From Cannabis sativa (taxonomy: Eukaryota > Streptophyta > Magnoliopsida > Rosales > Cannabaceae): a DNA stretch of 64,000 bases. The DNA lies in NCBI RefSeq assembly GCF_029168945.1, contig NC_083605.1, positions 7,261,280 through 7,325,279 on the forward strand. Direction: 5' to 3'. Below are positions 15,696 to 64,000 of this stretch, piece after piece; the first letter of the stretch is position 1, and the number at the start of each line of letters is the position of its first letter. Position numbers and translations under genes: made by a program. The notes beneath the pieces are model-generated. The model was not told where the DNA came from. It saw only the letters and a list, made by a program, of their open reading frames with translations, and ran no database searches.

Positions 15696-16223
15696 GAAAA
15701 AGAATTGGGTCTGGTTTGACCGTGCAGATTACATTAGACCCGTGGCTTCCTGTTATGGATAGACCCTCTCCATTTCTGCTTGTTCCTGGCCTCAAAAATT
15801 TCTCTGTTAGCAACTTGTTTCAAGTAGGTAATCAAAGTTGGGATGCTGATATAGTGTGTGATTTATTTTCTCCAACTGACGATGCTATCATACTTGGTAT
15901 CCCTATCCAACCATCGGGTGGGGATGACTCTTGGTACTGGCTAGCTGAGAAAAATGGGTTCTACTCTGTCCGTAGTGCGTACAAGCTGCTTCAAGATCAA
16001 AAGCATCACTCGGACAACCCCGAGGGCCATACATTTTGGAAGAAATTGTGGTCACTTAAGGTGCCTCCTAAGATGAAGGACCTGGTGTGGAGGGCGGCTT
16101 CTAATTGCCTTGCAACCAAGGTGAATCTTTGCATCAAAAAAGTTTTGGTTGATAACACTTGTCCTATGTGTGGTGTGTTTGCTGAATCGGAATTGCATAT
16201 CTTAGTTTCTTGTCAGTTTGCTT
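15600..16223 (+). pseudogene. LINE zinc-binding (zf-RVT) region, cut by Copia 1
   Basis: The frame at 15614 reads SNPRFIWSSIFAAKD, LDPWLP, FYSVRSAYKLLQ and WKKLWSLKVPPKMKDLVWRA, then CPMCGVFAESELHILVSC, the conserved C-x2-C...H-x4-C cluster downstream of plant L1 reverse transcriptases. At 16224 the frame runs into the Copia 1 LTR. Confidence 0.88.
16219..16223. repeat. Copia 1 target duplication (left), TGCTT
   Basis: TGCTT immediately precedes the LTR start TGTTAATTCC and is repeated at 25778-25782 after the other LTR. This defines a 5-bp duplication within the LINE zinc-binding region. Confidence 0.9.
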
Positions 16224-17505
16224 TGTTAATTCCATTTTTGGCATATTTAATTGACAAAAATATTTTATTATCTATTGTATATTTTTGGCTGGTATACATT
16301 AATATGGTTTCCTATTCGGTGTATTCAAACTTGAAAGGAAAGTTATCTAGCTTTCCTATTTTTGGAAAAAAGGTAAAAATGGTAAGTTTGGTTACCCATT
16401 TCGTTTTTATCTAACCAGCTGTGTAATCTGATCTTGTGTTGAGTTTCCCATTTTCTTAGATCAGGTTTCTTGAAGAGAAAACCGGAGCTAAACTTTCCTT
16501 TTCTATAAAAGGAAAGTTGTAGTTACTGCCCACGATTCTGTAGGTACAGAAACGGAAATTCCTGGACTGATTGAAGAATTATTTTAGGGAAGTTTCTAGT
16601 GGGTTGAGGTCTTGTTCAGACCGAATGTAAGCTGTCTATGAGATGTATATTCATTATAAATACATCTTATAGTAGCTAGGTTTTGTATCTCTTTCACACA
16701 CTTAGAATTATATTCATATCTTAAGGAAAGAGTGTCTTTGTTATGTTAACTCTTTTATTCACTTTCATATCATAAGAAAAGAGTGTCTTTGTTTTGTAGA
16801 GAAGAGTTGTTCTACTCTTACTCTGTTTATTTGTTGTTTGTATTGTCTTGAGTCTGTATTCAAGTCTACAACGAAGAAGAACATCAGTGCACCTTCGGGA
16901 GAAGGGTATTTACAAGCTTTCGGGAGATTGCTTTTGAAGTCTTGCATCGGGAGGATACAAGCACACCTTCGGGAGAAGGGTTTTTACAAGCTTTCGGGAG
17001 ATTGCTTTTGAAGTCTTGCATCGGGATGATACAAGCACACAACCTTCGGGAGATGGTTGTATAGGCTTTCGGGAGATAGCCTTTAAGCCTTGAATCGGGA
17101 GGATTCAAGCACTCTTCAAGGTGATCGAAGGGAGTTCGAGCTCTTGGAGTTTTATCAAGATTCGGTTAGTAGGTGGAATACATCAAGCTTGCGGCATACA
17201 ATAAGAGGGAGTCTATTTATGCATAAGTCAATTACTTTGTATTTTTGATACCGATCTAATGAATCTTATCTCTGGGCGTGGCCCCGTGGACTAGTAACAA
17301 TCTGAAAGGATTGTTGAAACCACGTACAAAAATCTTGTGTGTTTTTACTTTTATGCACTGTTTGTTTTTCTGGGTTTCTCTGGAGTTACAGAGTTGCATT
17401 CTGTAACTACAGAAAACTGTTTTCAGTACCAGTTTTATTATTCCGCATTTAATTAATCATTTAATTAAATAATCAAACTGGGAATATTAAAATACGGAAT
17501 TTCAA
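16224..17505 (+). repeat. 5' LTR of Copia 1
   Basis: 1282 bp from TGTTAATTCC to GGAATTTCAA. A TATA-like CATTATAAATACATC at about 16650 suggests transcription starts near 16680, so the hairpin-rich tandem repeats at 16890-17110 would be in the RNA leader. Confidence 0.95.
16890..17112 (+). repeat. 74-bp tandem repeat x3 with GGGA-loop hairpins (5' LTR)
   Basis: Three units, each with three predicted stem-loops whose apex is YTC-GGGA-GA: CCTTC-GGGA-GAAGG (16892), AGCTTTC-GGGA-GATTGCT (16915), then a CTTGNATC-GGGAG-GATNCAAG type. In unit 3 the stems become AACCTTC/GATGGTT (17041), GGCTTTC/GATAGCC (17064) and CTTGAATC/GATTCAAG. Stem bases change in pairs while the loop stays. The same array is in the 3' LTR (25161-25383). 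Confidence 0.8.
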
Positions 17506-17506
17506 T

Positions 17507-17518
17507 TGGTATCAGAGC
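17507..17518 (+). other. Copia 1 primer-binding site
   Basis: TGGTATCAGAGC, one base after the LTR end, is complementary to the 3' end of initiator methionine tRNA, the usual Copia minus-strand primer. Confidence 0.93.
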
Positions 17519-17577: not shown

Positions 17578-19096
17578 ATGTCTTTGTTTGCAGAAGGAAG
17601 TTCCATCTCTAGACCTCCTCTATTGAATGAGTCGAATTATCCTTATTGGAAGGTCAGGATGAGAGCTTTCATCAAATTGCAAGATGAGAAAGCATGGAGA
17701 GCTATTCTTACAGGTTGGTCTCAACCTACTGAAAATGATGAAAAAGGTAATACTCAGGTAAAATCTGAACTCAGTTGGACCACTGAAGATGAAAAGCCCG
17801 TTCTGGTTATAATAATAAGGCTTTACATGCTATTTTTAATGGTGTTGGTGAATGTTTTATTAAATTAATCTCATCTTGTGAATCTGCAAAAGAAGCATGG
17901 GAAATCCTTCAAATTCAATTTGAAGGTACTGCTGATGTAAAGAGATCACGATTTACCATGCTACAAACTAGATTTGATGAATTGAGAATGTCAGATACTG
18001 AAACTTTAAATGATTTCTATGAAAGATTATCTGATATTTCTAATGAGTTTTTTGCCTTGGGAGAAAAACTAGATGAATTTGTCTTGGTTCGAAAAATTGT
18101 TCGAGTTCTTCCTGACAGGTTTGATACAAAATTGGTTGCAATGGAAGAGGCAAAAGATTTTGGCAAGATGAAGGTTGAGGAACTCATGGGATCTTTAAGA
18201 ACCTTTGAGTTGAATCAACAAATCAAGAAAAAGAGTAAGCAAAATCTCTCGAATGAGAAAAGCAAAGGTATTGCCTTTAATGCTTCTGAAAATATTGTTT
18301 CTGATGATGAAAATGATGATGAAATGGTTCTATTGGCAAAAAATTTCCAAAAATTCATGAAATCTGGTGGAAATGAAAAGTTCTTTTCAAAGAACCCAAA
18401 AGGTAACATTTTTGGTAACATTCCCTCTAAACCTTTTTCATCTAACAATAAAAAAGGTATTAAATGCAGAGAATGTGAAGGTTTTGGTCACACTCAATCC
18501 GAATGTGCTAATACCTTAAAGAAAAATAAAAAGGGATTGAATGTTACTTGGAGTGATGATTCTGAGAGTAGTGAGGATGAAAAAGAAAAAGTTGTCCTAA
18601 CAAGTGTTTTGTCAAGAAATTTGCAGGAAAAAGGAAAAAGCATTTGCTTGAACAATATCCTGATCAATGACAACAAGGAAGAATCCAGATCCGAATCAGA
18701 TGAGTCAGAAATTGATGAGGATTCCATGGTTGAATCCTACAAGGTAATGTTTGGTAAGTGGTTGGAAACTAGTGCTGAAAATCGCTCCCTGGTTAAAGAT
18801 AATAAAATTTTGTGTAACAACATTAATGAGTTGGAAGATAAACTCAAATGTTGTGAATCTGAATTGTCTTTAAAAGAGTCAAAAATTATTTCTTTAACCA
18901 AGGAAATTGATAACATTAAAAAGAATGTTAAAATGTTAAATCCAGGTTCCACCATCTTTGAAAAAATTCAAAAATGTGGCCAAACCAATCATCTTGGTAC
19001 AAGGTTATGTTCCAAATCAACTTTTGTGTCTAATACCACTAATAGTTTTGTTTCGGAAGAAGTGTTTCTACCTCGCGGAGTTTCTGTTTCGGCTTG
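17578..19096 (+). pseudogene. Copia 1 gag
   Basis: Starts ATG at 17578 (MSLFAEGSSISRPPLLNES). The retrotransposon gag domain follows, with WKVRMRAF and DEKAWRAILTGW. A frameshift near 17795 (after TTEDEK) moves the frame to NNKALHAIFNGVG, then TRFDELRMSDTETL and ERLSDISNEFF. A C-x2-C-x4-H-x4-C knuckle (CRECEGFGHTQSEC) lies at about 18464-18505, followed by an acidic Ser-rich coiled stretch. Gag forms the particle that packages element RNA. A second frameshift near 19075-19090 separates gag from pol; the related Copia 2 reads through this point in one frame, so the break is a lesion here. Confidence 0.9.
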
Positions 19097-22000
19097 ACAA
19101 AGCACTCTGTTGTTACAGAAAAGAAGCAGCACGGTAAGTTTGACAATTTCAAAGGGAAAGGAAGACGTTTCATTCCTATTTGCCATTTTTGTGGAGTAAA
19201 AGGTCACATTCGACCTAAATGCATAACCATGCATAACATATTTAAATCTAATTACATTGGAAATAAACATGTTTTACAAAAACAAAAATGGGTTGTCAAA
19301 AACAAATGCTTGGTAGGTTCTACTTGTTTTAAAACTGTTGCTTCTAACATGTGGTATTTTGATAGTGGTTGTTCCAAACACATGACAGGTGAAAAAGAAT
19401 TTCTTGTGAACATAAGACCAATGCACTGTGGAGAAGTTACATTTGGTAACGGTCTTACTGGTAAAGTCATAGGAATGGGAACTCTCAAGTTCGAAGGGCT
19501 TCCTAAACTAAAGAATGTCATGTTGGTTGAAGGACTAAAAGCTAATCTACTTAGCATTAGTCAGATTTGTGATCAGGGTTATACTGTGAGCTTTGATAGC
19601 AATCATTGCTATGTATATAATATTCTTGATGAAATTGTGTTACAAGGGCTGCGATCTAGTGATAATTGTTATACACTCACTACGCATGCCACTTGTCATT
19701 CTGTCATTGAAAATGTTACTGACCTATGGCATGAAAAACTTGGTCACATTCACTTTAAAAATCTGAAAAAATTATCTGTTTCAGGGATTGTTCGAGGATT
19801 ACCTAAATTAGGTAAAGAGTCATTGGGAAAATGTGGTCCATGCCAGTTAGGTAAGCAACTGAAAATTTCTCACAAGAGTGTCCCAGATGTGAATACTTCT
19901 AGAGTTCTCGAACTCTTGCACATGGACTTAATGGGTCCAATCCAGGTAGAAAGCTTAAATGGTAAAAGGTATATTTTTGTTTGTGTTGATGATTTTTCTC
20001 GATTCTCATGGGTGGATTTTTTGAGAGAAAAATCTGATACTTTTGAAGCTTTCCAATCTCTGTGTTTGAAATTACGAGTTGAAAAAGATTGTAACATTGG
20101 CAAAATTGTTAGGATTAGGAGTGATCATGGTAAGGAATTTGAAAATACCGTATATGATGAATTTTGTAAAGCTAACGGTATTTCTCATGAATTTTCTGCT
20201 CCTAAAACTCCTCCACAAAATGGAGTGGTTGAAAGAAAGAATCGTACTCTAACAGAAATGGCTAGATTAATGTTGAATAGCAAGAAGCTCACAAAGCGCC
20301 TTTGGGCCGAAGCCATTAACACTGCTTGCTATACCATCAACAGAGTATTCTTGCGTCCAGGTACTCACAAAACACCATATGAAATCTGGAAAGGTAAGAA
20401 ATCAAATGTAAGCCACTTTCATGTGTTCGGATGTAAGTGTTATATTTTACGAGATCGTGATTACATTGGTAAATTTGATTCCAAAAGTGATGAAGGTGTT
20501 TTCTTAGGATATTCCACAAATAGTAGGGCATATCGTGTGTATAACATGAGAACCCAAACTGTTATGGAATCTGCTAATGTTGTTGTTGATGATCTAAAAG
20601 ATTTTTCTGAGTTTTCCACATAAGAACAGATTGAAGATTTGCTTGAAAAGCCTGCTGTTGAGGAAAAGGAACTTGACGAAGCTTCAGAAGCAGTCGTCGA
20701 GGTTACTGTGCAGGAATCTGTTGCTACAGAAAATCCAACAACAAAAGAATCTGAGTATCCTTTGAATTCAATCATTGATCCAATACAGAGGGAACCATCC
20801 TCCAGGGTTAAAAAGAATCATCCTTCAGATCTCATCCTCGAAAACTTGGATGAGAGCATGGTTACAAGAAGAAAATATGCCAATATAATTCAATTTTTAT
20901 GTTTTATTTCTTCTTTAGAACCTAAATCTGTAAAAGAAGCTTTAATGGATGAAGATTGGTTTTTAGCTATGCAGGATGAGCTTCATCTGTTTGTTCGAAA
21001 CAAAGTCTGGAAAATGATTCCTAGACCACCGTTTGTGAACATCATTGGAACCAAGTGGATCTTCAAAAATAAGAGTGATGAGTTTGGCACTATCATTCGA
21101 AACAAGGCAAGGTTGGTTGCCCAAGGATACACTCAAGTTGAGGGTGTTGACTTTGATGAAACATTTGCTCCAGTAGCTAGACTGGAATCGATCAGGTTAC
21201 TTCTTTCCATAGCTTGCATTCTTGGTATTAAATTGTATCAAATGGATGTCAAATCCGCTTTTTTGAATGGGCTGTTAAAAGAAGAAGTATATGTGGAACA
21301 ACCTAAAGGGTTTGAGGATCCACATTTTCCTGATCATGTATATAAGTTAGACAAGGCATGGTATGGTCTAAAACAAGCACCACGTGCTTGGTATGAGCGT
21401 CTAACTGATTTCTTGCTTTCTCATGATTACAAGAGAGGAAATGTTGATAAAACACTTTTCATCAAAAACATTAATTCTGATGTGATTGTTGCTCAAATAT
21501 ATGTTGATGATATTGTGTTTGGCTCTACCTCTAACTCTGAAGTGCAGGTTTTTGTTTCCCAAATGCAAAAGGAGTTCGAAATGAGTATGGTAGGTGAACT
21601 CACTTATTTTCTCGGTCTTCAAGTAAAGCAATCAGATGAGGGAACTTTTGTCACTCAAAGCAAGTATGCAAAGAACTTGGTGAAAAAGTTTGGTCTTGAG
21701 AAAGCCAAACATACCAACACTCCCATGAGCACAACTTTGAAATTAAGCAAAGATGAACAAGGAGTAAAGGTAGATCAAACTTTGTATCGAAGTATGATAG
21801 GAAGTTTGCTTTATCTTACTGCTAGTCGTCCTGACATTTGCTATAGTGTTGGTGTTTGTGCTCGTTATCAGGCAAATCCCATGGAATCCCATCTTTCTGC
21901 TGTGAAAAGAATCATTCGCTATGTAAATAGCACTATTGATTTTGGGATTTGGTTTTCAAAAGACACTAATTCTAACCTTGTTTGCTTTAGTGATGCTGAT

Positions 22001-22443
22001 TGGGCAGGTAATGCAGATGATAGAAAAAGTACTAGTGGTGGATGTTTCTATCTTGGAAACAATCTGGTTTCATGGCATAGCAAGAAGCAAAACTCAATCT
22101 CTCTGTCCACAACTGAGGCTGAGTACATTGCGGCGGGTAGTTGTTGTACCCAATTGTTATGGATGAAACAAATGATGGCTGATTATGGGTTTGATTTGAA
22201 AACTTTAACCATCTTCTGTGATAACAACCTGTTACTATAAACATTTCTAAGAATCCTGTTCAACACTCTCGCACAAAGCACATAGACATTCATCATCACT
22301 TTATTAGAGAGCTTGTGGAAAATAAAATTCTTGTCTTAGAATATGTTGAAACTAGCAAACAAATTGCAGATATTTTTACTAAAGCTCTTGACTCGATCCG
22401 ATTTATTTCTCTAAGGAAATCCTTAGGGGTTTGTACTGTTTAA
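19094..22443 (+). pseudogene. Copia 1 pol (protease, integrase, reverse transcriptase, RNase H)
   Basis: In order: second zinc knuckle CHFCGVKGHIRPKC; protease WYFDSGCSKHMTG; GAG-pre-integrase with WHEKLGHIHF and CGPCQLGK; integrase core with LLHMDLMG, RSDHGKEF and NGVVERKNRT carrying the D, D, E residues; RT with YQMDVKSAFLNG and YVDDIVFGST; RNase H with FSDADWAG, STTEAEY and QHSRTKHIDIHHHFIREL. Lesions: an in-frame TAA at 20621-20623 between integrase and RT, and a frameshift near 22237 in RNase H, after which the frame runs to the stop at 22441-22443. These enzymes would mature, copy and insert the element; this copy needs help in trans. Confidence 0.95.
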
Positions 22444-22457
22444 TGCTTTTGTTTTTC

Positions 22458-23161
22458 ATAATCCTTGATATTTGAGTTGTCTTAGAGTTCATAATGTCTT
22501 GTCTTTGTCCTAGAAGAAAATTTCAACCTTATAAGAATTTCAGTCATTATTTTATTGCTAATGTTGTAATGTTATGATGTCATACAGGTTTGTCAGGAAA
22601 ATTGTTCACTCCTCCCAGGAATATTCAGGTTCATCAAACAGTGTTGTGTAAGCTACCATTTTCGAATAATGCTGTTCAAAAACTGTGTGTTCAAGCTCCA
22701 TTGGATGAATAGAGCTACCTATCTCAATGTGTGAAAGCCATCTCTGAGTAAGTTGGAACTATGTAATTAGGAGTTATGTAGAAGATACGCTACCATTGAA
22801 AAGGGCTACCATTGAGATAGTGTGACAGCGTCTCCTATGGGTACAATTTATCAGAAAAAGTCTTTTTGACGAATTGGGCAATGTTCCATGCTTACACTTT
22901 CACACACTAATGCTTGACACAGTTTGTGGTAAAAATTTGTTTATTCTCGAAAATGGTGTTATAAAACTATTACATACTGTTTGATGTGCTTTAATATTCT
23001 TGGTGATGGAGTCAATTTTTCCTGTGAACTGGTATGACCTCATTCTATTACTTCATTAGTTTGAAAAAATAATTTCTGATTATTCTTATGAGTTTGATTT
23101 TTCATCAGGGACAAAGACAAATGGACATTGTGAATTCTAGTTGCAAAAATATCAAGGTTAT
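22458..23161. repeat. Long imperfect inverted repeat after pol (arms ~300 bp)
   Basis: The left arm (22458-22763) is complementary to the right arm (22881-23161) over almost its whole length, roughly 75% by eye. Anchors: CCTTGATATTT with AAATATCAAGG at the outer end, TTGTCTTTGTCC with GGACAAAGACAA, GTCATAC with GTATGAC, CATCAAACAGT (22632-22642) with ACTGTTTGATG (22976-22986), ACCATTTTCGA (22655-22665) with TCGAAAATGGT (22947-22957), AAACTGTGT with ACACAGTTT, and TGTGTGAAAG (22728-22737) with CTTTCACACA (22897-22906). The apex is about 117 nt. It starts 15 bp after the pol stop codon. Confidence 0.88.
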
Positions 23162-23910
23162 TTTATTTTTCTATATTTTAATAAAAAAATAAAAAAATAA
23201 AAAAATAATAAAATAAAATAAAAAAAAAGGGTTCGTGATCGAGTTGTCAAGTGAGCTTTGTTAAAAAATTTTTGTTATTTTTTTGTTATGTTTCATTATG
23301 TTCTTAGACACAATTTTTGCTCTTAAGTGGTGATTAGTGCTTTTTGTGTCTTGGTGTGTTCTCTTGTTCTTTATTTGCAATTTTTCTTTGGGGGGCATTT
23401 TTTGAAAAAATAAAAGAAAAAGGGGGGCATATTTTTTCTTTTCGAAATTTTTGTTTTCGAATCCTTGTACATTTTTTTTTCTTTCTTTTATTTTTTCATT
23501 TTATGGAAACATGTTTTAATTGTATTTATTTATTTAGAATGTTTCCTTTATTTTGTGGAGATTTTGTCTTTTTGGTGGCTATTTCGGTTTTGGTAAGGGT
23601 TTTTAAATTCTTAAATTTTGTGGGGATTTTTGGTTTCCTTTTTCCATTTAAGGAAACATTGACCAAATTTTGAAAAACCTTTTTTGGTTTCCTTTTTTCT
23701 CTCCACACGTGAGTCAAAGGTAAGGAGGTTACTTTCCTTTTCAATTATTTTTCTGATTTTGGGTAAGTAAAATCAAATGCTATATATGGTCAACTACCCA
23801 TTAACCCACGATCACCACTCTCTCTTCTCTTTCCATTTTTTTTCTCTCTCAAAGGTCTAACTTTTTTTCAAAGTGTAAGAGTGCTTGTGTTCTAGGATTT
23901 TCAAAGGAAA
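23162..23910. other. T-rich post-pol spacer of Copia 1
   Basis: Low-complexity A- and T-rich sequence. A long T-rich open frame (23344-23673) lacks an ATG start and encodes a Phe-rich string dictated by composition; I do not call it a gene. A TATA-like TATATATGG at about 23782 and a CT-rich tract (23815-23860) precede the small ORF at 23911. Confidence 0.5.
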
Positions 23911-24087
23911 ATGGCCAAAACTAAGAATGCCCAATCGTCCAAGAAGCCCTCTCGTGGCTCTGCTTCTGCTTCTACAGAAATGGGTGAATTCAACTTGTGT
24001 TTAGGGAGAATAGCGACAAGTCAAGCCTTGCTTCTCAGGAAGATGGACAACATCATGAAATACTTCCGACCCAATGATGATGAATAA
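23911..24087 (+). CDS. Small post-pol ORF of Copia 1 (58 aa, unknown function)
   Basis: ATG at 23911 in a good context (AAAATGGCC), ending TAA at 24085-24087. The N-terminal 22 residues are basic and Ser/Ala-rich (MAKTKNAQSSKKPSRG then SASAS). The rest is a short amphipathic stretch (GRIATSQALLLRKMDNIMKY) ending PNDDE. There is no membrane segment. SIRE-lineage elements often carry an extra, envelope-like or unknown ORF here; this could be a remnant or unrelated. Its composition is much less T-biased than its surroundings, and a TATA-like box and CT-rich leader lie upstream. Whether it is translated is unknown. Confidence 0.45.
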   Translation: MAKTKNAQSSKKPSRGSASASTEMGEFNLCLGRIATSQALLLRKMDNIMKYFRPNDDE

Positions 24088-24480: not shown

Positions 24481-24494
24481 CCAAAGGGGGAGAT
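24481..24494 (+). other. Polypurine tract of Copia 1
   Basis: CCAAAGGGGGAGAT directly precedes the 3' LTR start TGTTAATTCC; it is the expected plus-strand primer. Confidence 0.9.
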
Positions 24495-25777
24495 TGTTAA
24501 TTCCATTTTTGGCATTTTTAATTGACAAAAATATTTTATTATTTATTGTATATTTTCGGCTGGTATACATTAATATGGTTTCCTATTTGGTGTATTCAAA
24601 CTTGAAAGGAAAGTTATCTAGCTTTCCTATTTTTGGAAAAAAGGTAAAAATGGTAAGTTTGGTTACCCATTTCGTTTTTATCTAACCAGCTGTGTAATCT
24701 GATCTTGTGTTGAGTTTCCCATTTTCTTAGATTAGGTTTCTTGAAGAGAAAACCGGAGCTAAACTTTCTTTTTCTATAAAAGGAAAGTTGTAGTTACTAC
24801 CCACGATTCTGTAGGTACAGAAACGGAAATTCCTGGACTGATTGATGAATTATTTTAGGGAAGTTTCTAGTGGGTTGAGGTCTTGTTCAGACCGAATGTA
24901 AGCTGTCTATGAGATGTATATTCATTATAAATACATCTTATAGTAGCTAGGTTTTGTATCTCTTTCACACACTTAGAATTATATTCATATCTTAAGGAAG
25001 GAGTGTCTTTGTTATGTTAACTCTTTTATTCACTTTCATATCATAAGAAAAGAGTGTCTTTGTTTTGTAGAGAAGAGTTGTTCTACTCTTACTCTGTTTA
25101 TTTGTTGTTTGTATTGTCTTGAGTCTGTATTCAAGTCTACAACGAAGAAGAACATCAGTGCACCTTCGGGAGAAGGGTATTTACAAGCTTTCGGGAGATT
25201 GCTTTTGAAGTCTTGCATCGGGAGGATACAAGCACACCTTCGGGAGAAGGGTTTTTACAAGCTTTCGGGAGATTGCTTTTGAAGTCTTGCATCGGGATGA
25301 TACAAGCACACAACCTTCGGGAGATGGTTGTATAGGCTTTCGGGAGATAGCCTTTAAGCCTTGAATCGGGAGGATTCAAGCACTCTTCAAGGTGATCGAA
25401 GGGAGTTCGAGCTCTTGGAGTTTTATCAAGATTCGGTTAGTAGGTGGAATACATCAAGCTTGCGGCATACAATAAGAGGGAGTCTATTTATGCATAAGTC
25501 AATTACTTTGTATTTTTGATACCGATCTAATGAATCTTATCTCTGGGCGTGGCCCCGTGGACTAGTAACAATCTGAAAGGATTGTTGAAACCACGTACAA
25601 AAATCTTGTGTGTTTTTACTTTTATGCACTGTTTGTTTTTCTGGGTTTCTCTGGAGTTACAGAGTTGTATTCTGTAACTACGGAAAAACTGTTTTCAGTA
25701 CCAGTTTTATTATTCCGCATTTAATTAATCACTTAATTAAATAATCAAACTGGGAATATTAAAATACGGAATTTCAA
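24495..25777 (+). repeat. 3' LTR of Copia 1
   Basis: 1283 bp, nearly identical to the 5' LTR. Differences noted by eye include bases near 24515, 24543, 24557, 24735, 24770, 24799, 24846 and 24999, and an extra A near 25685. The target duplication TGCTT follows at 25778-25782. Confidence 0.95.
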
Positions 25778-25782
25778 TGCTT

Positions 25783-55070: not shown

Positions 55071-55143
55071 ATTAAAAAGTTTACATAAATGTGAATATTA
55101 TTATTTTTTATGTGACCTAAATTCCTTATCACTATGTTATAAT

Positions 55144-57012
55144 TGTTGGAAGTTATTTTACCAGGATCTTAGATCTACTCACAAGTATGTTGATTTAACA
55201 ACCTAAATATGAACTTCTAAAACGATAGGAAATTAAACACATAAGAGTATCAGAAATCTTACAGTGATTGCAGCGGAATATATGTCTCCTCCCACTCAGA
55301 TCTCTAACCCTTGATTCCTTTCTGTAGCAGAGTATAATCAAGATCTGAGCCCGATAGTCCTTCTTTGTTATTTCTGAATTCTACACAGCCTTCCTCACTA
55401 TGATTGAGGTATTACTTGATGTGTGTGGGCACTACTCTAGCACTTATACTTTTCGAAACAGTGAAGGAAGAGAGAGAGAGAGAGGGTGGCGGCTCAGAGA
55501 GAATTTTCTGAGAGAAAATTCTTTCAGAATAATGTTGTGAAAAGGTTGTACAGTTCTGTTCAACTCTGAAGCCTTTGCCTTCTATTTATAGAAGACTACC
55601 CAGGGCTATGATTGACAATTGGAATTGAAAAAATCAAAGAGAAAAGGAAGCTAAGTGGCTGGCCTAGGCATCGTGGAAACAAGGCTTGCCACTTTTCCAA
55701 CTTTCCTTTTCCTACAGTGATAGTTTCCTGTTTTGTCAAAAACTGCCAATTCCTTTGTTCAACCACATAGATGTCAAATCTAATTATTTAATAATTAAAA
55801 TTAATTATCAAATAATATATTGTCATTTATTTTATTAATAAAGTTTCCTAATTAATAAATATGCCCTTCAAAATCTCTATTTACTGTTTTGCCCTTAATA
55901 AGTGATAAATTCTCAAATAGACAAGTCTATCTTGAGAATTTTTAATTGATTAATTAAAATCAATTAAATGAGTCTTACAAGTAATATCATCTCAACTAGT
56001 GAGGGGACCATGGGTCTATATATCCGAGCTTCCAATAAGCAGATCTAGAATTTACCACTTAAATTCACTGACTTATTAATTCTTCGTTAAATCCACACAT
56101 AGAACTCAGAATTGCACTCTCAGTATATAGAATGCTCTATATGTTCCACCATATAGACACATTATTAGTTATCCATTGTTATAATCCTAATGTGATCAAT
56201 GATCCTCTATATGGATGATTTACACTGTAAAGGGACTAAATTACCGTAACACCCTACAATGTATTTTATCCTTAAAACACTTAACCCTGTATAAATGATA
56301 TTTCAACTAAGTGAAATGAGTACTCAATCATTTATCTCGTTTGGTTAAGCTCGAAGGAAATCACCCTTTGCTTACTATTCGCCAGATAGAAGCTATAGAT
56401 TCCATATTTATGTTAGCGCTCCCACTCAATCGCACTACCGTGTTCCCAAAATGTATGTATTGCCCAGACTAAAGATTAGGCTTAACTAACAAATCAAAGA
56501 ACACGAATAATACTCTTGAAATTGAGCCTAACCATATCAGGATTTCGATCATGTGATCTAGGATCAACTTATGATATTGAATTGAATAGATATTTATGGT
56601 AAGTTTCAAAATCTAATTCAAAGTTCAATATCGGTCCATTCCAATGCATACTCCATGCATCCAACCTGAGCTTTACTTTAACCTATGTTCTGGAAAGAAC
56701 ATAACATTTCTCCAAATGTAAGTAAACTCTGTTGTAGATTGTCATATCAAGCAAAACCCAAAGGTTCTGATAAATCTAGGAATACTTTATTCACATAGTC
56801 ATGTTTACTTTCCACTGTGTTGACAACACAATAAACATGATCAAGTATGTGAAAAGGGGTTGGGATGAATTTATAAATCAAATAGACAAGTAATTGATTA
56901 AGTGAACCATAACATACACAAGTGAATGAAAAATTACTTCTGTTACTTTATTGTTATTGAATAATCTGGATTACATTGAAACAGAGTTTTATTTAGGGCA
57001 TAAAACCCAACA
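55144..57012 (-). repeat. 3' LTR of Copia 3
   Basis: 1869 bp; the minus strand begins TGTTGGGTTTTATGCCC (57012) and ends AACTTCCAACA (55144). It includes a GA microsatellite near 55470 and a TATA-like TCTATAAATAGAAGG (about 55590). Confidence 0.93.
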
Positions 57013-57032
57013 AACTCCCACTTGCACTAATA
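57013..57032 (-). other. Polypurine tract of Copia 3
   Basis: The minus strand reads AGTGGGAGTTTGT immediately before the LTR start TGTTGGG; it is the expected plus-strand primer region. Confidence 0.8.
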
Positions 57033-57041
57033 TAAAACAAA

Positions 57042-60000
57042 TCAGTACATTTCAATTAATCCTAAATTCTGACGGTGCTTTTCGAATGAAGTTACTGCCA
57101 AGACTTTGGTGAATGGATCAGCTAAGTTATCCTGCGTATCCACTTTCTCCACCAGTACATCCCCTCTTGCCACATATTCTCTGATAATATGATACTTTCT
57201 TTCTATATGCTTACTTCTCTTGTGGCTCCGAGGTTCCTTACTGTTGGCTATAGCTCCAGTGTTATCACAAAGCAGGACTAGAGGCCTTTCCATTCCAGGA
57301 ACTACACCGAGATTGGTGAAGAACTTCCTAAGCCAGACAACCTCTTTAGCTGCTTCAGCCGCAGCTATGTATTCTGCCTCCATGGTAGAATCCGAAATCG
57401 CAGTTTGTTTAGCACTTCTCCAAACCACTGCTCCACCCCCAAGAGTAAACACCATCCCAGATGTAGATTTCCTGTCTTCAAGACATCCCTGGAAATCTGA
57501 GTCTGTATAGCCTAAGGGATTTCAAAATATACTTAACAACATTCCAATGTACCCGTCCTGGATTTGACTGATACCTGCTCACGATTCCAACTGCATAGCA
57601 GATGTCAGGTCTAGTGCATAGCATAGCATACATTAGACTTCCAACTGCAGAAGCATAAGGAATTTTTGCCATGTCTTCTATCTCTTGAGGATCAGTAGGA
57701 CACTGTTCCTTAGATAGACAGATACCATGTCTAGAGGGCATGTTTGCTCCATTGGTATTGGTCATGGAAAATCTCTCTAGAACTTTGTCAATGTAAGCTG
57801 TTTGAGAGAGAGCAAGGGATCTGTTCTTTCGGTTTCTGACAATCTGAATACCAAGAACATAGGCTGCCTCACCCAAGTCTTTCATGTCGAATTGAGTGTC
57901 AAGCCATTCCTTGATGTGAGTCATTTTCTTGACATTGTTTCCAATGATCAAAATGTCATCAACATAAAGGACCAGGAATACTACTACTTGGTTTTCCTTG
58001 AGTTGGTAAACACAAGGTTCATCTTCATTCTGATGAAAGCCGTAGGTTTTGATGATCTCATCAAACCTTTTATTCCATGAGCGAGAAGCTTGCTTAAGTC
58101 CATATATGGACCTATTTAATTTGCAAACTTTATTCTCCTGCCCAGGAAAAACATAACCTTCTGGTTGCTCCATATAGATGGTTTCTTCAAGAAGCCCATT
58201 AAGAAAGGTTGTCTTGACATCCATTTGCCAAATTTTATAATCTAAAACGGCAGCTATGGAGAGAAGAATTCGGATGGATTTGAGCATGGCAACCAGACTA
58301 AAAGTTTCCTCATAGTCCACACCTTCTCTTTGGGTATAACCCTTGGCGACCAGTCTAGCTTTGAAAGTTTCGACTTTGCCTCCAGCACCTCTTTTCTTCT
58401 TGTAGACCCATTTACATCCAATTGGACGAAAATCATCAGGTGGTTCTACATATTCCCAGACTTTGTTCTTTTTCATGGAATCCATTTCTGAATCCATACC
58501 GGCTGACCATCGCTTCCGTTGCGGACTTGCCATTGTCTGTTTATAGGTTAATGGGTCGTCATCAATACCGTCACCAACGACCATATTGATTTCACCATCC
58601 AAGCCATAACGAGATGGTTTTGTAGAAACCCTCCCACTACGACGAGGAGCGGTGACCTTCTGAACAGGAGCTTTAGTAGTAGTTTTCTCAGTTGCTACAA
58701 CTGAGGGAGTGGGATGTTCCTCTTCTTGAGTAGAAGAAGATGGTACATTTGAAGGAACAGTATCTATGAGCATTTCCTCTAATACAATTTCACTTTTCGG
58801 TTTGTTGTCTTTCATATAGTTATCTTCAAGGAAAGTAGCATTTGTAGAAACAAACACTTTGTTATCCTTGTGACTATAGAACAGTCCACCCCTAGTCTCT
58901 TTAGAATTTCCGACAAACATGCAAACTTCAGTTCGCGATTCCAGTTTGCCTTCTTTCTTTCTTAAGACGTGAGCAGGGCACCCCCAAATCCTATAATGGC
59001 GCAAACTAGGTGTGCGACCATTCCATAGTTCAACGGGTGTCTTAGGGACTGCTTTAGATGGAACAACATTTACAATGTCGTTTGCCATTTGAATAGCATA
59101 TCCCCAGAAGGATGTAGACAGAGTTGAATAACTCAGCATAGACCTAACCATTTCTAAGAGAGTGCGATTTCTTCTTTCTGCAATTCCATTCTGCTGTGGA
59201 GTGCTTGGGGCAGTATATTGGGATTCAATTCCAAGTTCAATTAAATGATCTTTGAACTGCATATCCATATATTCTCCACCCCTATCAGTTCGCAAGATCT
59301 TTAATGTTTTACCTAATTGGTTTTGAGCCAAAGCATGAAATTCTTGAAACTTTTCAAACGTTTCAGATTTCTTTTGCATTAGGTAAAGAAAACTATATCT
59401 AGAGAAATCGTCAATGAAAGTGACGAAATACTCATAACCTCCTCTGGCTTTTACATTCAGCGGTCCGCAAACATCTGAATGTACTAACCCTAGGGGTTCT
59501 TTGGCACGCTCTCCCTTCGCAGAGAAAGAACGTTTGGTCATTTTTCCTTCTAGGCAAGACTCGCAGACTGGCGATTCTCCTAAGACGACATTTTTCAATG
59601 GACTGTCTTTGGTTAGCCTATTGAGTCTATCAAAACCTATATGACCTAAACGTAAATGCCATAGATAAGTTTGATCATCATTATCAATCTCTTTTCTCTT
59701 AAGGCTTCTAGGTTTAGCTACATTGAAAAGTTCAGTATTTAGTGAGATTTGAGTATCAGGTCTTAAAACATAAAGCCCTCGTTCCATGTTTGCAACACAT
59801 ATATGAAATCCATTACGAGAAATTGAACAATTTGAACTCGAAAAATTCAATCTATAAAATTGTGTCTGTAAACATGAAACGCTAATCAAGTTTCTACTAA
59901 AACTGGGAATATATAAAACATTCTCTAAAAGTAAAAACTTCTTAGAATTAAACTTGATTCGGGCTGTTCCTCTTGCTTTAATTGATACCAACTCGCCATT

Positions 60001-60072
60001 TCCAACTTTAAGCTTTAACTCATCTGGGTGAAGATTCTCCCAAGTTTCAAGCAAATTTGCAATGAAGAACAT
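57042..60072 (-). pseudogene. Copia 3 pol (integrase, RT, RNase H)
   Basis: Long frame 60072-57478: GAG-pre-integrase (LWHLRLGHIGFDRL, CESCLEGKM), integrase core (LVHSDVCGPLN, RTDRGGEYMD, QQNGIAERRNRTLLEM), RT (WQMDVKTTFLNG, YGLKQASRSW, LYVDDILIIGN, TRPDICYAVGIVSRYQ). Near 57520 about 20 residues are missing between YILK and GYTDSDF and the frame shifts. RNase H then continues (GYTDSDFQGCLEDRK) as frame 57455-57042 with STMEAEY, CDNTGAIA, KHIERKYHIIREY and the stop. The enzymes insert, copy and process element DNA. One deletion-frameshift and the gag defect disable it; the rest is well preserved. Confidence 0.94.
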
Positions 60073-60704
60073 ACATGGTTAGTAGATCCAGAATCAACAA
60101 TCCAGGAGGATTTGTCGTTCTCTAAAACACATGATTCAAATACAAAAGCATCACCTTCGTTTGAATTGTCTAGAAGCCTGGGACATTGTTCTTCTTTATG
60201 TCCCTTTCCATTACAATTCGCACATAGAACATGATGTCTGATAATTGTACTTGAAGAAGCAGCTTTGTTAGAGCCCTCATGCTTAATCTTCTTCCTCTGA
60301 TTAAAGCTTGCAATACCAGGAGGTCTCATTGCAATCAGATTCCGCTCATGGGCCCTTAACTCAGACTCGAGTTTGTCCATGTCGGAGGAGTTAGGATTGT
60401 TCAATAAATAATATAGAACAAAACTGTTATACTCCTGAGGAAGACTATAAAGTATGAGTCTTACCCATTGTTCCTTTGATAAATCAATTCCTAGTAGATT
60501 TGCCTTTTGGAATTTCAGATTCATCAACAATAGGTGCGAGTTAATGCAACTACCAGGATACATTTTCACACTATTGAGTTCTTTTGCAAAGATACTAACT
60601 AGGAGTGGATCGGGATGAGGGTTATTCATATTGGCACTACAACATATCAATAAACAGAAGTAAGGTTTTGGTTCTGTAAATTCATAGACAGGTTCAGAAA
60701 ACAA
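60015..60704 (-). pseudogene. Copia 3 gag (C-terminal part) and protease start
   Basis: Minus-strand frame with LILYSLPQEYNSF (end of the gag domain), a zinc knuckle CANCNGKGHKEEQC (about 60225-60180) and protease WIVDSGSTNHVCSS (about 60110-60070). A frameshift near 60050 separates it from pol. The first roughly 120 residues of gag (substrate-binding start and the DELARCYIL region of related elements) are missing. A short unrelated N-terminus replaces them. Confidence 0.85.
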
Positions 60705-63219
60705 GTAATCACATATGTTATAAAAATACTAAATCTAACATAGTTTATTTTCCAAGGTTTCCAACGAACTGATACAGTGTCCCGTTTAGGCGAGAGTCAA
60801 AGCATCATCCATTGAATAGAGTTGTCAATTCATCTAAAATGTCAAACATTCTAGCAACCTTTTATTCGATCAAGATTAGAATTCAGCGTTGTCCCGTTTA
60901 GGCGAGAGTCAAGGCAATTCTATCTTATGAGCTTCTACCATTGTTTCGCATTCTTGTAAGTCTTATACAGTCGCCACCATTAGGGTGGTCATGAACCATA
61001 TAAAAATAAACTTATAAGAATGCTTATCTTTCGAGATTAAACGGCGCTAACTTGCTAATGAACGTTCCTCCATTAGGGAGGATTACTCACTAAAACAATA
61101 GCTATGTAAAACCAACAATGGAGATCGAATTTCTCTTGATTAAAGCTCATTATTTAACAATGTATTTTGTTTAATCATTTATATTCCATATCTCAATAAT
61201 GAAATATTACAAATTAAAGTAAAAACTTTAATTAAATTTCAAAAATGGAATAATTTTGAAAAATATCTTATTTAAGTTGTTTAGAAAAATCTAAATACCC
61301 AACTCAAATATTCTTCAATCAATGACTTAATTAAATATTACCAATTAAGTAGTGACCACTTAATTTAGAAGATATTCCATTTTAAGTTCCCATATTTATA
61401 AAATATCAACTTAAAAAATATCTAAAGAATCTTAATAACCAATTCCTAAAATTCCTCAACTTAATTTATAATAGGAAATTCAAAAATATTCAAATCTAAG
61501 TTGATTTGATAGATTTAACTAAATCTCAACTTAAATAGGAATATTTAATGAAATTATAAAATTAAGATTCAGAAAGAATTTATATGGTTATAATTCCATA
61601 TTTAATTAAAAACAAGAAAAATACATATAGCTTTCCAGAATATAACTATTCAAACTATGTTTTTCTTAAATTAATTTCAAGGAAGAATGAAATTAATTAT
61701 GTTGCTAATCAATTTTTTATTAGGTCAAACTAATATAATTAACCTAGCACAGTTATCCAAATCAGGCAAATGGGCCTTCACAATTGGGGTTGTTCATGTG
61801 AGGGGGGCTGGGTCCAGTATGTCGTACCCACTTCTAAGGCTCCCAACTATCACACAAGGCCCAAAAGAGAGGAATTTAACCTTAAAATGAATAACTGTTA
61901 TTAATTGAATAGGCTCACTACTAAATGAGCCTAAATAAAATCTATCAGTTATGATATTTATTTAGCAACATCAACCTATATGTATCTATAATAGAAATTA
62001 AACATATAGGCTCACACAGGCATACACATTTGGATGGATCCTATCATGTTACTAGGTCATACACAGATGAAAGAAATTTGTAAAAATTACCTGTTACAAA
62101 TTATTTACTTGATCTATCATCAATTGAACCGTTGGTTAAAATTAGATCATAGGATCTATCATCAAGTTAACCAAGGCAATTTAGATCAAGCAATAATAGG
62201 TTTTAGAAAACTTACAAACAATCTAAAACACATACTCCTGCAACAAGGTTAGATTTGAATAGTTGGATGTAGGATTTATTTAATTTTAAACATTTATTTC
62301 GAAAATAAAATTAAAATTAAACCTACCATTTTGAAAAATTAGGTTTTGGGTAACCTAAATGTCATTTCAAAATTAAATTGCTAACTTTCCTTTTAAATTT
62401 CATGTTATTTAATAAATTAAATAATAAAATAGAAAATGGTAAATACATACCCTTTTCTTGTTTTACAATATAATTTAATTAAAAAAATAACAAAACTTAA
62501 AAGTTAACAAAATTACCTTATTTCCTCTTTTAAAATTATCATGATTATTTTGATCTTATTTTAATTAAGGTCAAGTTACCAAAAAAAAAAATTAATATCT
62601 GACCTTAAAAAAAATAAAATAATCAAATTTTAAAGGAAATAAGAAAAGAGGTAAGCAAAACTTGATTTTTCCTATTTTCAAAATCAAATTACACTAATAT
62701 CTAAAATTAATTTTTAAAAATAAAATTAATTTATTTCTGATAATTAGATTTGAAATTTGAAAAACAAAAATCAACATACAAAACTACACAAAAAATCGGA
62801 ATTATAGCATGAAAAATCAAAAAAATTGAAAAATTGGATGAACTGTACGGATGGCATGCCATGCATGCCCATCCGCGCTCGTTTCTGGGGTGCATGGCCG
62901 AGAAATCACGGCGCAGGAAGGCTGCAAGCAGCCATTCCGCGAGCGTGATGAGGTTGCTCGTCACCCCGATTTTTCCAATTTTCAAAAATTCATAACTAAT
63001 TCAAATTAAATCGAAATCGAGTTCTGTAAAAAAGTAAATTGCTTAGCATTTTCCAAACTATCTAACAAAAATAATTACAGAATCAGAACAGTACCATTTT
63101 TCCCAGAATTCACAAACAACAATCAAACATCAATATGACACTCAAAGCAACATGATACCATCCAAAAAATAAGCAAATCGTTTTAAGTCCAAATTTTTTG
63201 CAAGCAAATCAATTACCAT
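60705..63219 (-). other. Unusually long leader of Copia 3
   Basis: 2.5 kb between the primer site and the gag remnant, without a coding frame. It contains two copies of CCCGTTTAGGCGAGAGTCAA (60781-60800, 60893-60912). Two hairpins follow: CCACC-ATTAG-GGTGG (60974-60988) and CCTCC-ATTAG-GGAGG (61067-61081). The remainder is AT-rich with one GC-rich patch (62840-62970). Part may be sequence substituted for the missing gag start. Confidence 0.7.
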
Positions 63220-63232
63220 GGCTCTGGTGCCA
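63220..63232 (-). other. Copia 3 primer-binding site
   Basis: The minus strand reads TGGCACCAGAGCC, two changes from the Met-tRNA site TGGTATCAGAGCC, three bases from the LTR end. Confidence 0.8.
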
Positions 63233-63234
63233 GT

Positions 63235-64000
63235 TATTGGAAGTTATTTTACCAGGATCTTAGATCTACTCACAAGTATGTTGATTTAACAACCTAAATA
63301 TGAACTTCTAAAATGATAAGAAATTACACACATAAGAGTATCAGAAATCTTACAGTGATTGCAGCGGAATATATGTCTCCTCCCACTCAGATCTCTAACC
63401 CTTGATTCCTTTCTGTAGCAGAGTATAATCAAGATCTGAGCTCGATAGTCCTTCTTTGTTGTTTTTGAATTCTACACAGCCTTCCTCACTATGATTGAGG
63501 TATTACTTGATGTGTGTGGGCACTACTCTAGCACTTATACTTTTCGAAACAGTGAAGGAAGAGAGAGAGAGAGAGGGTGGCGCCTCAGAGAGAATTTTCT
63601 GAGAGAAAATTCTTTCAGAATAATGTTGTGAAAAGGTTGTACAGTTCTGTTCAACTCTGAAGCCTTTGCCTTCTATTTATAGAAGACCACCCAGGGCTAT
63701 GATTGACATTTGGAATTGAAAAAATCAAAGAGAAAAGGAAGCTAAGTGGCCGGCCTAGGCATTGTGGAAACAAGGCTTGCTACTTTTCCAACTTTCCTTT
63801 TCCTACACTGATAGTTTCCTGTTTTCTCAAAAACTGCCAATTCCTTTGTTCAACCACATAAATGTCAAATCTAATTATTTAATAATTAAAATTAATTATC
63901 AAATAATATATTGTCATTTATTTTATTAATAATGAAACTAATTAAAGTTTCCTAATTAATAAGTATGCCCTTCAAAATCTCTATTTACTGTTTTGCCCTT
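63235..64000 (-). repeat. 5' LTR of Copia 3, incomplete
   Basis: Matches 55144 onward of the other LTR (TTGGAAGTTATTTTACCAGG and following) with about 2% differences and an extra segment near 63930-63945. The end has TA in place of TG. It continues past the window. Confidence 0.92.

What the first reader, a model, noticed from the sequence alone, without database searches (positions are those of the whole stretch)
22458..23161. A 700-bp imperfect foldback sits directly behind the pol stop of a young SIRE-type retrotransposon
The two arms (22458-22763 and 22881-23161) can be aligned end to end in opposite orientation: nested perfect pairs of 9-12 bp are joined by diverged stretches, and all pairs share nearly the same centre (about 22808). 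Transcribed, this would fold into a hairpin of about 280 base pairs with a 117-nt apex. The arms are only about 75% complementary while the element's LTRs are about 99% identical, so the structure predates this insertion and was inherited by the family. Options: a structured packaging, translation or 3'-end signal; a source of small RNAs against the element; or an old foldback insertion. I know of no description of such a domain here.
Basis: partly seen in the sequence, partly recalled or inferred. Interest (0 to 1): 0.86.

Follow-up and report, generated by a model that had tools for sequence, protein, structure and literature searches.

The report
Maintained foldback behind retrotransposon pol
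A plant jumping gene carries, just after its polymerase gene, a 700-letter stretch that can fold back on itself; comparison of copies suggests that selection kept the pairing while the family spread, but what it does is not shown.

Summary
In a young Sirevirus-type Copia element (LTRs 99.0% identical) an inverted repeat spans about 22458-23161, 14 nt behind the pol stop. It far exceeds chance: arm score 125 against at most 33 in 1000 shuffles; fold energy -257 against -158 +/- 7. It is a family feature: the 40 best-scored genome hits carry it whole, one being the window itself, and 18 of 20 copies chosen by integrase carry all or part. Copies that lost part of RT keep it.

Against plain decay: along the transmitting lineage pairing shows no net loss, while neutral simulation expects 14 +/- 4 lost pairs (0 of 200 runs as low; eight variants agree). 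Inserted copies decay in neutral proportion.

Limits: covariation is not significant (p 0.06), swapping arms shows no co-evolution (p 0.15), G-U changes are not favoured. Action as RNA is inferred. Read-through into ORF3 is unlikely (16-33 stops per frame). Preferred mechanism: a stop-proximal RNA stability element (decay insulator) of the gag-pol mRNA. Packaging signal, DNA-level element, small-RNA source and relic remain open.

The parts
16224..17505 (+). 5' LTR of the host element (TSD TGCTT at 16219-16223)
17507..17518 (+). primer binding site TGGTATCAGAGC (initiator-Met tRNA type, recalled)
17958..19097 (+). gag ORF (Retrotran_gag_2)
19094..22443 (+). pol: integrase piece 19094-20623, RT piece 20639-22240, last codons in another frame; terminal TAA 22441-22443. 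The frame is broken near 22240 in this copy
22458..22763 (+). left arm of the foldback
22764..22880 (+). apex, the part with the fewest transmitted variants (shared/private 10/53)
22881..23161 (+). right arm of the foldback
23781..23788 (+). TATATATG: TATA-like site 123 bp before the ORF3 start; TATA-like in 6 of 6 aligned copies (exact in 4); candidate internal promoter
23911..24087 (+). ORF3 remnant of 58 aa; longer copies carry a PF20167 ORF here
24483..24494 (+). polypurine tract AAAGGGGGAGAT
24495..25777 (+). 3' LTR (TSD TGCTT at 25778-25782)

Best explanation
The foldback is a cis-acting domain of the element, kept by selection. Most likely it acts in the full-length gag-pol RNA as a structured element directly behind the pol stop codon that protects this mRNA, whose 3' UTR of more than 3 kb (spacer, ORF3 remnant, PPT, LTR) should invite nonsense-mediated decay, in the manner of the Rous sarcoma virus RNA stability element. 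Shown: the foldback, its presence through the family, its fixed place 14-15 nt behind the pol stop in the 6 copies read, and the absence of net pairing loss in the transmitting lineage. Inferred: that it works as RNA and that the work is protection of the message.
For: Strong foldback. Present whole in the 40 best-scored hits and wholly or partly in 18 of 20 integrase-chosen copies. Pol stop to foldback spacing conserved in 6 of 6 copies read, the window included. Tree of 51 foldbacks: on the trunk 7 pairs lost and 7 gained, neutral simulation 17.3 lost and 2.9 gained, net 14.4 +/- 3.9, 0 of 200 runs as low; 0 of 100 in each of eight variants of rooting and pair definition. Terminal branches lose and gain 188.5:29.5, neutral 241:40. 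Older copies are about as stable as young ones after 4-6% random decay; stability did not fall along the trunk. Transmitted variants are rarer relative to private ones in the apex (10/53) and paired arm sites (69/192) than in unpaired arm sites (35/64). 20 of 30 integrase-hit loci lack about 1.1 kb of pol (integrase end and first part of RT) but run on into the left arm. A stability element lies immediately behind the gag stop in Rous sarcoma virus (PMC2925335, abstract).
Against: No significant covariation: sum G 231 against 156 +/- 41, p 0.06; best single pair p 0.003 among 74; RNAalifold covariation term +0.69. No arm co-evolution (own 79.5, permuted 79.0 +/- 0.5, p 0.15). With pairs defined without the window copy, transmitted changes do not favour G-U over A-C (12:15 internal, 71:64 terminal), so RNA-level selection is not shown. 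Outer arms vary at about the rate of third codon positions. The tree and the test come from the same alignment, and recombination among copies was not modelled. Nothing here tests RNA decay.
Confidence: 0.35

Rival explanations
1. Genome-length RNA mark: the stem is a packaging or dimerisation signal, found only in full-length RNA and absent from an ORF3 mRNA made from an internal promoter or by splicing.
For: It lies between pol and ORF3 and is kept in copies that lost parts of pol or ORF3; ORF3 has a TATA-like site of its own behind the foldback; 23-30 ATGs lie between pol stop and ORF3, so ORF3 needs another RNA.
Against: Deleted copies keep many other sequences too. Fixed spacing to the pol stop is not needed for packaging. 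No RNA data.
Confidence: 0.2
2. DNA-level or primary-sequence element: the arms and above all the apex are conserved for bound proteins (enhancer, insulator or promoter part for ORF3), and pairing is kept as a by-product.
For: The apex, not the stem, has the fewest transmitted variants; no G-U preference; repeated GCTACCATT units in the apex; internal TATA-like site downstream. Palindromic repeats before ENV and in LTRs are described for Sireviruses (PMC2829016, passages).
Against: On the trunk, changes concentrate at unpaired partner columns (47% against 22% +/- 7% expected; p 0.000-0.060 over eight variants), as pairing selection would give.
Confidence: 0.2
3. Neutral relic: an old inverted duplication or foldback insertion that hitchhikes and decays.
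For: Arms only about 74% alike; no significant covariation; own arms pair no better than swapped arms; outer arms near third-codon rate.
Against: No net pairing loss on the trunk against 14 +/- 4 expected; slope of stability on trunk distance +197 to +310 kcal per unit where my estimate from the decay curve is about -900.
Confidence: 0.18
4. Hairpin source of small RNAs that silences the element or tunes its copy number.
For: Structured regions of maize Copia elements attract more small RNAs (PMC10760457, passages).
Against: Uninterrupted pairing is short; a silencing trigger should be lost, not kept, by the transmitting lineage (inference). No small-RNA data here.
Confidence: 0.07

Closest known systems
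Rous sarcoma virus RNA stability element (RSE)
   Same: Structured stretch immediately behind the stop codon of an ORF followed by a very long 3' UTR; retroelement full-length RNA
   Different: RSE follows gag and its minimal element is 155 nt (PMC2925335, abstract); here about 700 nt behind pol, a long foldback, a plant Copia element, no decay data
Sirevirus inverted repeats (PPT/3'LTR junction IR, gag-pol boundary IR, palindromic RM boxes)
   Same: Same retroelement genus type; inverted repeats in non-coding parts
   Different: Those are short and lie elsewhere (PMC2829016, passages and section 20); this one has arms of about 300 bp behind pol
miRNA-like structures of maize Copia elements
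   Same: Predicted folds in Copia RNA
   Different: Concentrated in LTRs (PMC10760457, passages), not behind pol
Foldback transposons / MITEs
   Same: Inverted-repeat shape
   Different: Always seen here inside the element at the same place; no target-site duplication recognised at its edges

Membership tests
Sirevirus (Ty1/copia) | Copia order integrase before RT, copia gag | tested here: met
   Retrotran_gag_2, gag_pre-integrs, rve, RVT_2 in this order
Sirevirus (Ty1/copia) | Env-like / third ORF between pol and 3' LTR in family members | tested here: met
   PF20167 ORF in L063; 364-aa ORF in L075 without Pfam match; 58-aa remnant in the window copy
Sirevirus (Ty1/copia) | Placement in the Sirevirus clade of an RT tree | not tested
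   No reference RT sequences were aligned
RSE-type stability element | Lies immediately behind the stop codon | tested here: met
   14-15 nt in 6 of 6 copies read
RSE-type stability element | Protects RNA from nonsense-mediated decay | not testable with these tools
   Needs reporter RNA half-lives
Functional RNA structure | Significant compensatory covariation | tested here: not met
   p 0.06 overall; 74 pairs vary on both sides, low power; 5 of 184 RNAalifold pairs with both-sided changes
Functional RNA structure | Pairing kept against neutral expectation | tested here: met
   net loss 0 against 14.4 +/- 3.9, eight variants
Functional RNA structure | G-U tolerated more than A-C on the RNA strand | tested here: not met
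   12:15 internal, 71:64 terminal, p 0.53
SIRE1-type stop read-through into ORF3 | Open frame from pol stop into ORF3 | tested here: not met
   16-33 stops in each frame, 6 of 6 copies
Foldback transposon / MITE | Target-site duplication at the edges and independent copies | tested here: inconclusive
   No duplication seen by eye at 22458/23161; copies outside the element were not looked for beyond capped hit lists
Curated RNA family (Rfam) | Match above gathering score | tested here: not met
   22300-23300: two matches, both below gathering

The most novel reading that the evidence does not exclude
A plant LTR retrotransposon lineage carries a selection-maintained stem of about 200 pairs directly behind its pol stop that acts as a decay insulator, or as the mark of genome-length RNA: a retrovirus-like stop-proximal RNA control element in a plant Copia lineage.
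Probability: 0.25. Interest if true: 0.75.

Novelty: new variant of a known kind. Interest (0 to 1): 0.5.

Why it matters
How plant retrotransposons keep a message with a 3-kb 3' UTR alive, and how they tell genome RNA from other RNA, is poorly known. A foldback with fixed place and kept pairing is a concrete candidate that a reporter test can settle. It also shows how a single genome separates transmitted from post-insertion change, giving a test for structure maintenance where covariation has too little power.

Tried and rejected
Read-through of the pol stop into ORF3: rejected, many stops. Chance: rejected. Rfam family: nothing above gathering. Relatives in viral contigs: 0 matches and 2 matches of 22 bases, chance. 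A G-U argument for RNA selection looked good with pairs taken from the window copy (private 45 of 185 against shared 35 of 68 variants keep pairing, p 6e-5; transitions only 40 of 75 against 31 of 42, p 0.03) but vanished with pairs defined from older copies; I do not use it. Low diversity of the foldback against its flanks in the 28 copies found by the foldback itself is biased by that choice; the integrase-chosen copies show a milder contrast. One third-ORF element of another lineage (L099, pol not matching ours) has no inverted repeat before ORF3 (best score 26): one copy only. A further search for sister families by ORF3 protein did not complete. Literature: searches gave no listed paper on such a domain; searches failed.

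Slip: the lists of older copies contain the window copy by a string comparison; searches are free of it and agree. In some searches the younger copies L064 and L075 are counted among the older.

Full report
What was checked. The foldback is real: arms 22458-22763 and 22881-23161, local score 125 against at most 33 in 1000 shuffles, MFE -256.8 against -158.1 +/- 7.2; the outer arms give E 3e-18. It is the strongest inverted repeat in a scan of the 64-kb window. 217 long-range pairs are predicted.

Where it lies. The host is a complete young Copia element: LTRs 16224-17505 and 24495-25777 (98.99% identical), target duplication TGCTT, PBS, PPT. Gag, integrase and RT match Pfam in Copia order. Pol ends with TAA at 22441-22443; its frame is broken near 22240 in this copy. 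The foldback starts 14 nt later; in 6 of 6 copies read this spacing is 14-15 nt. Behind it come a linker, a TATA-like site at 23781 (TATA-like in 6 of 6 copies aligned, exact in 4) and ORF3, which is a 58-aa remnant here but longer in other copies (L063 with PF20167, E 6e-18; L075 364 aa without Pfam match). 16-33 stops per frame and 23-30 ATGs lie between pol stop and ORF3, so neither read-through nor scanning reaches ORF3 easily.

How widespread it is. The genome search scored 40 of 1094 candidates; all 40 are full-length at 97-100%, one being the window. To avoid choosing by the foldback I took copies by an integrase query and fetched the downstream stretch for 20: 18 of 20 match the foldback, 5 with both arms, most of the others because the fetched stretch begins inside it. 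The two without a match come from loci whose homology breaks at 21321 and 22500. No clean joint of pol end to linker was seen. Of 30 loci, 20 lack about 1.1 kb (element 20226-21311; integrase end and first part of RT), in one measured case a net 1083 nt, a multiple of three; 19 of these 20 alignments run at least 140 nt into the left arm, one only to 22500. Partly defective copies thus keep the domain.

Is it maintained? I compared 51 foldbacks: the window, 27 near copies, 5 integrase-chosen and 18 older copies (L060 lacks much of the apex). The tree is a ladder of old copies with long private branches and a young crown; root to crown is 0.069 substitutions per site. With pair columns defined from 21 older copies only, the trunk shows 7.0 lost and 7.0 gained pairs; neutral simulation on the same tree from the same root states gives 17.3 and 2.9, net loss 14.4 +/- 3.9, and 0 of 200 runs are as low. 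Four rootings, Watson-Crick pairs only, and pairs taken from single copies give the same (0 of 100 each; eight variants). Changes on the trunk fall on unpaired partner columns in 47% against 22% expected (p 0.000-0.060). On terminal branches losses and gains (188.5:29.5) have the neutral ratio (241:40). In line with this, old copies (mean -215 kcal) look like young ones (-267) after about 4-6% random change, and stability corrected for private decay does not fall along the trunk (slopes +310, p 0.03, and +197, p 0.16). By class, shared to private variants are 10/53 in the apex, 69/192 at paired and 35/64 at unpaired arm sites; 0.24 at codon positions 1+2, 0.40 at position 3, 0.47 and 0.33 in the outer left and right arms and 0.79 in the linker.

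What speaks against RNA. A phylogenetic null for covariation gives p 0.06 over 74 varying pairs, the best single pair p 0.003, not significant after correction; seven pairs covary in register against 0-4 when slid; RNAalifold's covariation term is +0.69. Pairing within copies is no better than between copies (79.5 against 79.0 +/- 0.5, p 0.15, 31 sequences), which also speaks against gene conversion between arms. Transmitted changes do not favour G-U over A-C. So the pairing, or the sequence that carries it, was kept mainly by removal of harmful changes; whether RNA or DNA is selected is open.

Mechanism. The fixed place behind the pol stop and the long 3' UTR make a stop-proximal stability element the most economical idea; the Rous sarcoma virus RSE is the model (PMC2925335, abstract; PMC5580461 and PMC4764554 in the listing). 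That plant mRNAs with long 3' UTRs are decay targets is recalled. Packaging, DNA-level control and small-RNA production are the rivals. Sireviruses have other inverted repeats, at the PPT/3'LTR junction and the gag-pol boundary, and palindromic boxes near ENV and in LTRs (PMC2829016, passages and section 20); none is this one. Maize Copia structures attracting small RNAs lie in LTRs (PMC10760457, passages). I found no description of such a domain in the listings; four further searches failed.

Verdict. Observation confirmed; interpretation partly supported; a family-wide foldback whose pairing was probably kept by selection, function inferred. The host species is not known to me and deeper relatives could not be reached.

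Noticed in passing
L034-L058, element 20226-21311: 20 of 30 integrase-hit loci share nearly the same 1.1-kb deletion of the integrase end and first part of RT: an amplified, probably non-autonomous subfamily.
   Followed up: partly
window 23911-24087; L063, L075: ORF3 (PF20167 in L063) is deleted down to 58 aa in the window copy, with a TATA-like site and in 3 of 6 copies a CACGTG box upstream.
   Followed up: partly
window 22780-22815 (apex): A 16-bp unit around GCTACCATTGA varies in number among copies: fewer in L062 and L073, more in L083 than in the window.
   Followed up: no
window 47083-43610 and 35938-35672, minus strand: Older relative of the same family, interrupted; its homology to the element stops at 20274, so it does not show a foldback.
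   Followed up: no
window 55143-64000, minus strand: Another Copia element with LTRs 96% identical, pol only about 32% like ours, running to the window's end; no strong inverted repeat behind its pol in the scan.
   Followed up: partly
window 16890-17112 and 25161-25383: Tandem repeats of about 74 bp in the LTRs.
   Followed up: no
window 23179-23228: A-rich tract right behind the foldback, of very different length among copies.
   Followed up: no
L099: Element of another lineage with a PF20167 third ORF; its pol does not match ours and looks Ty3/Gypsy-like by recall; no foldback before the ORF.
   Followed up: partly
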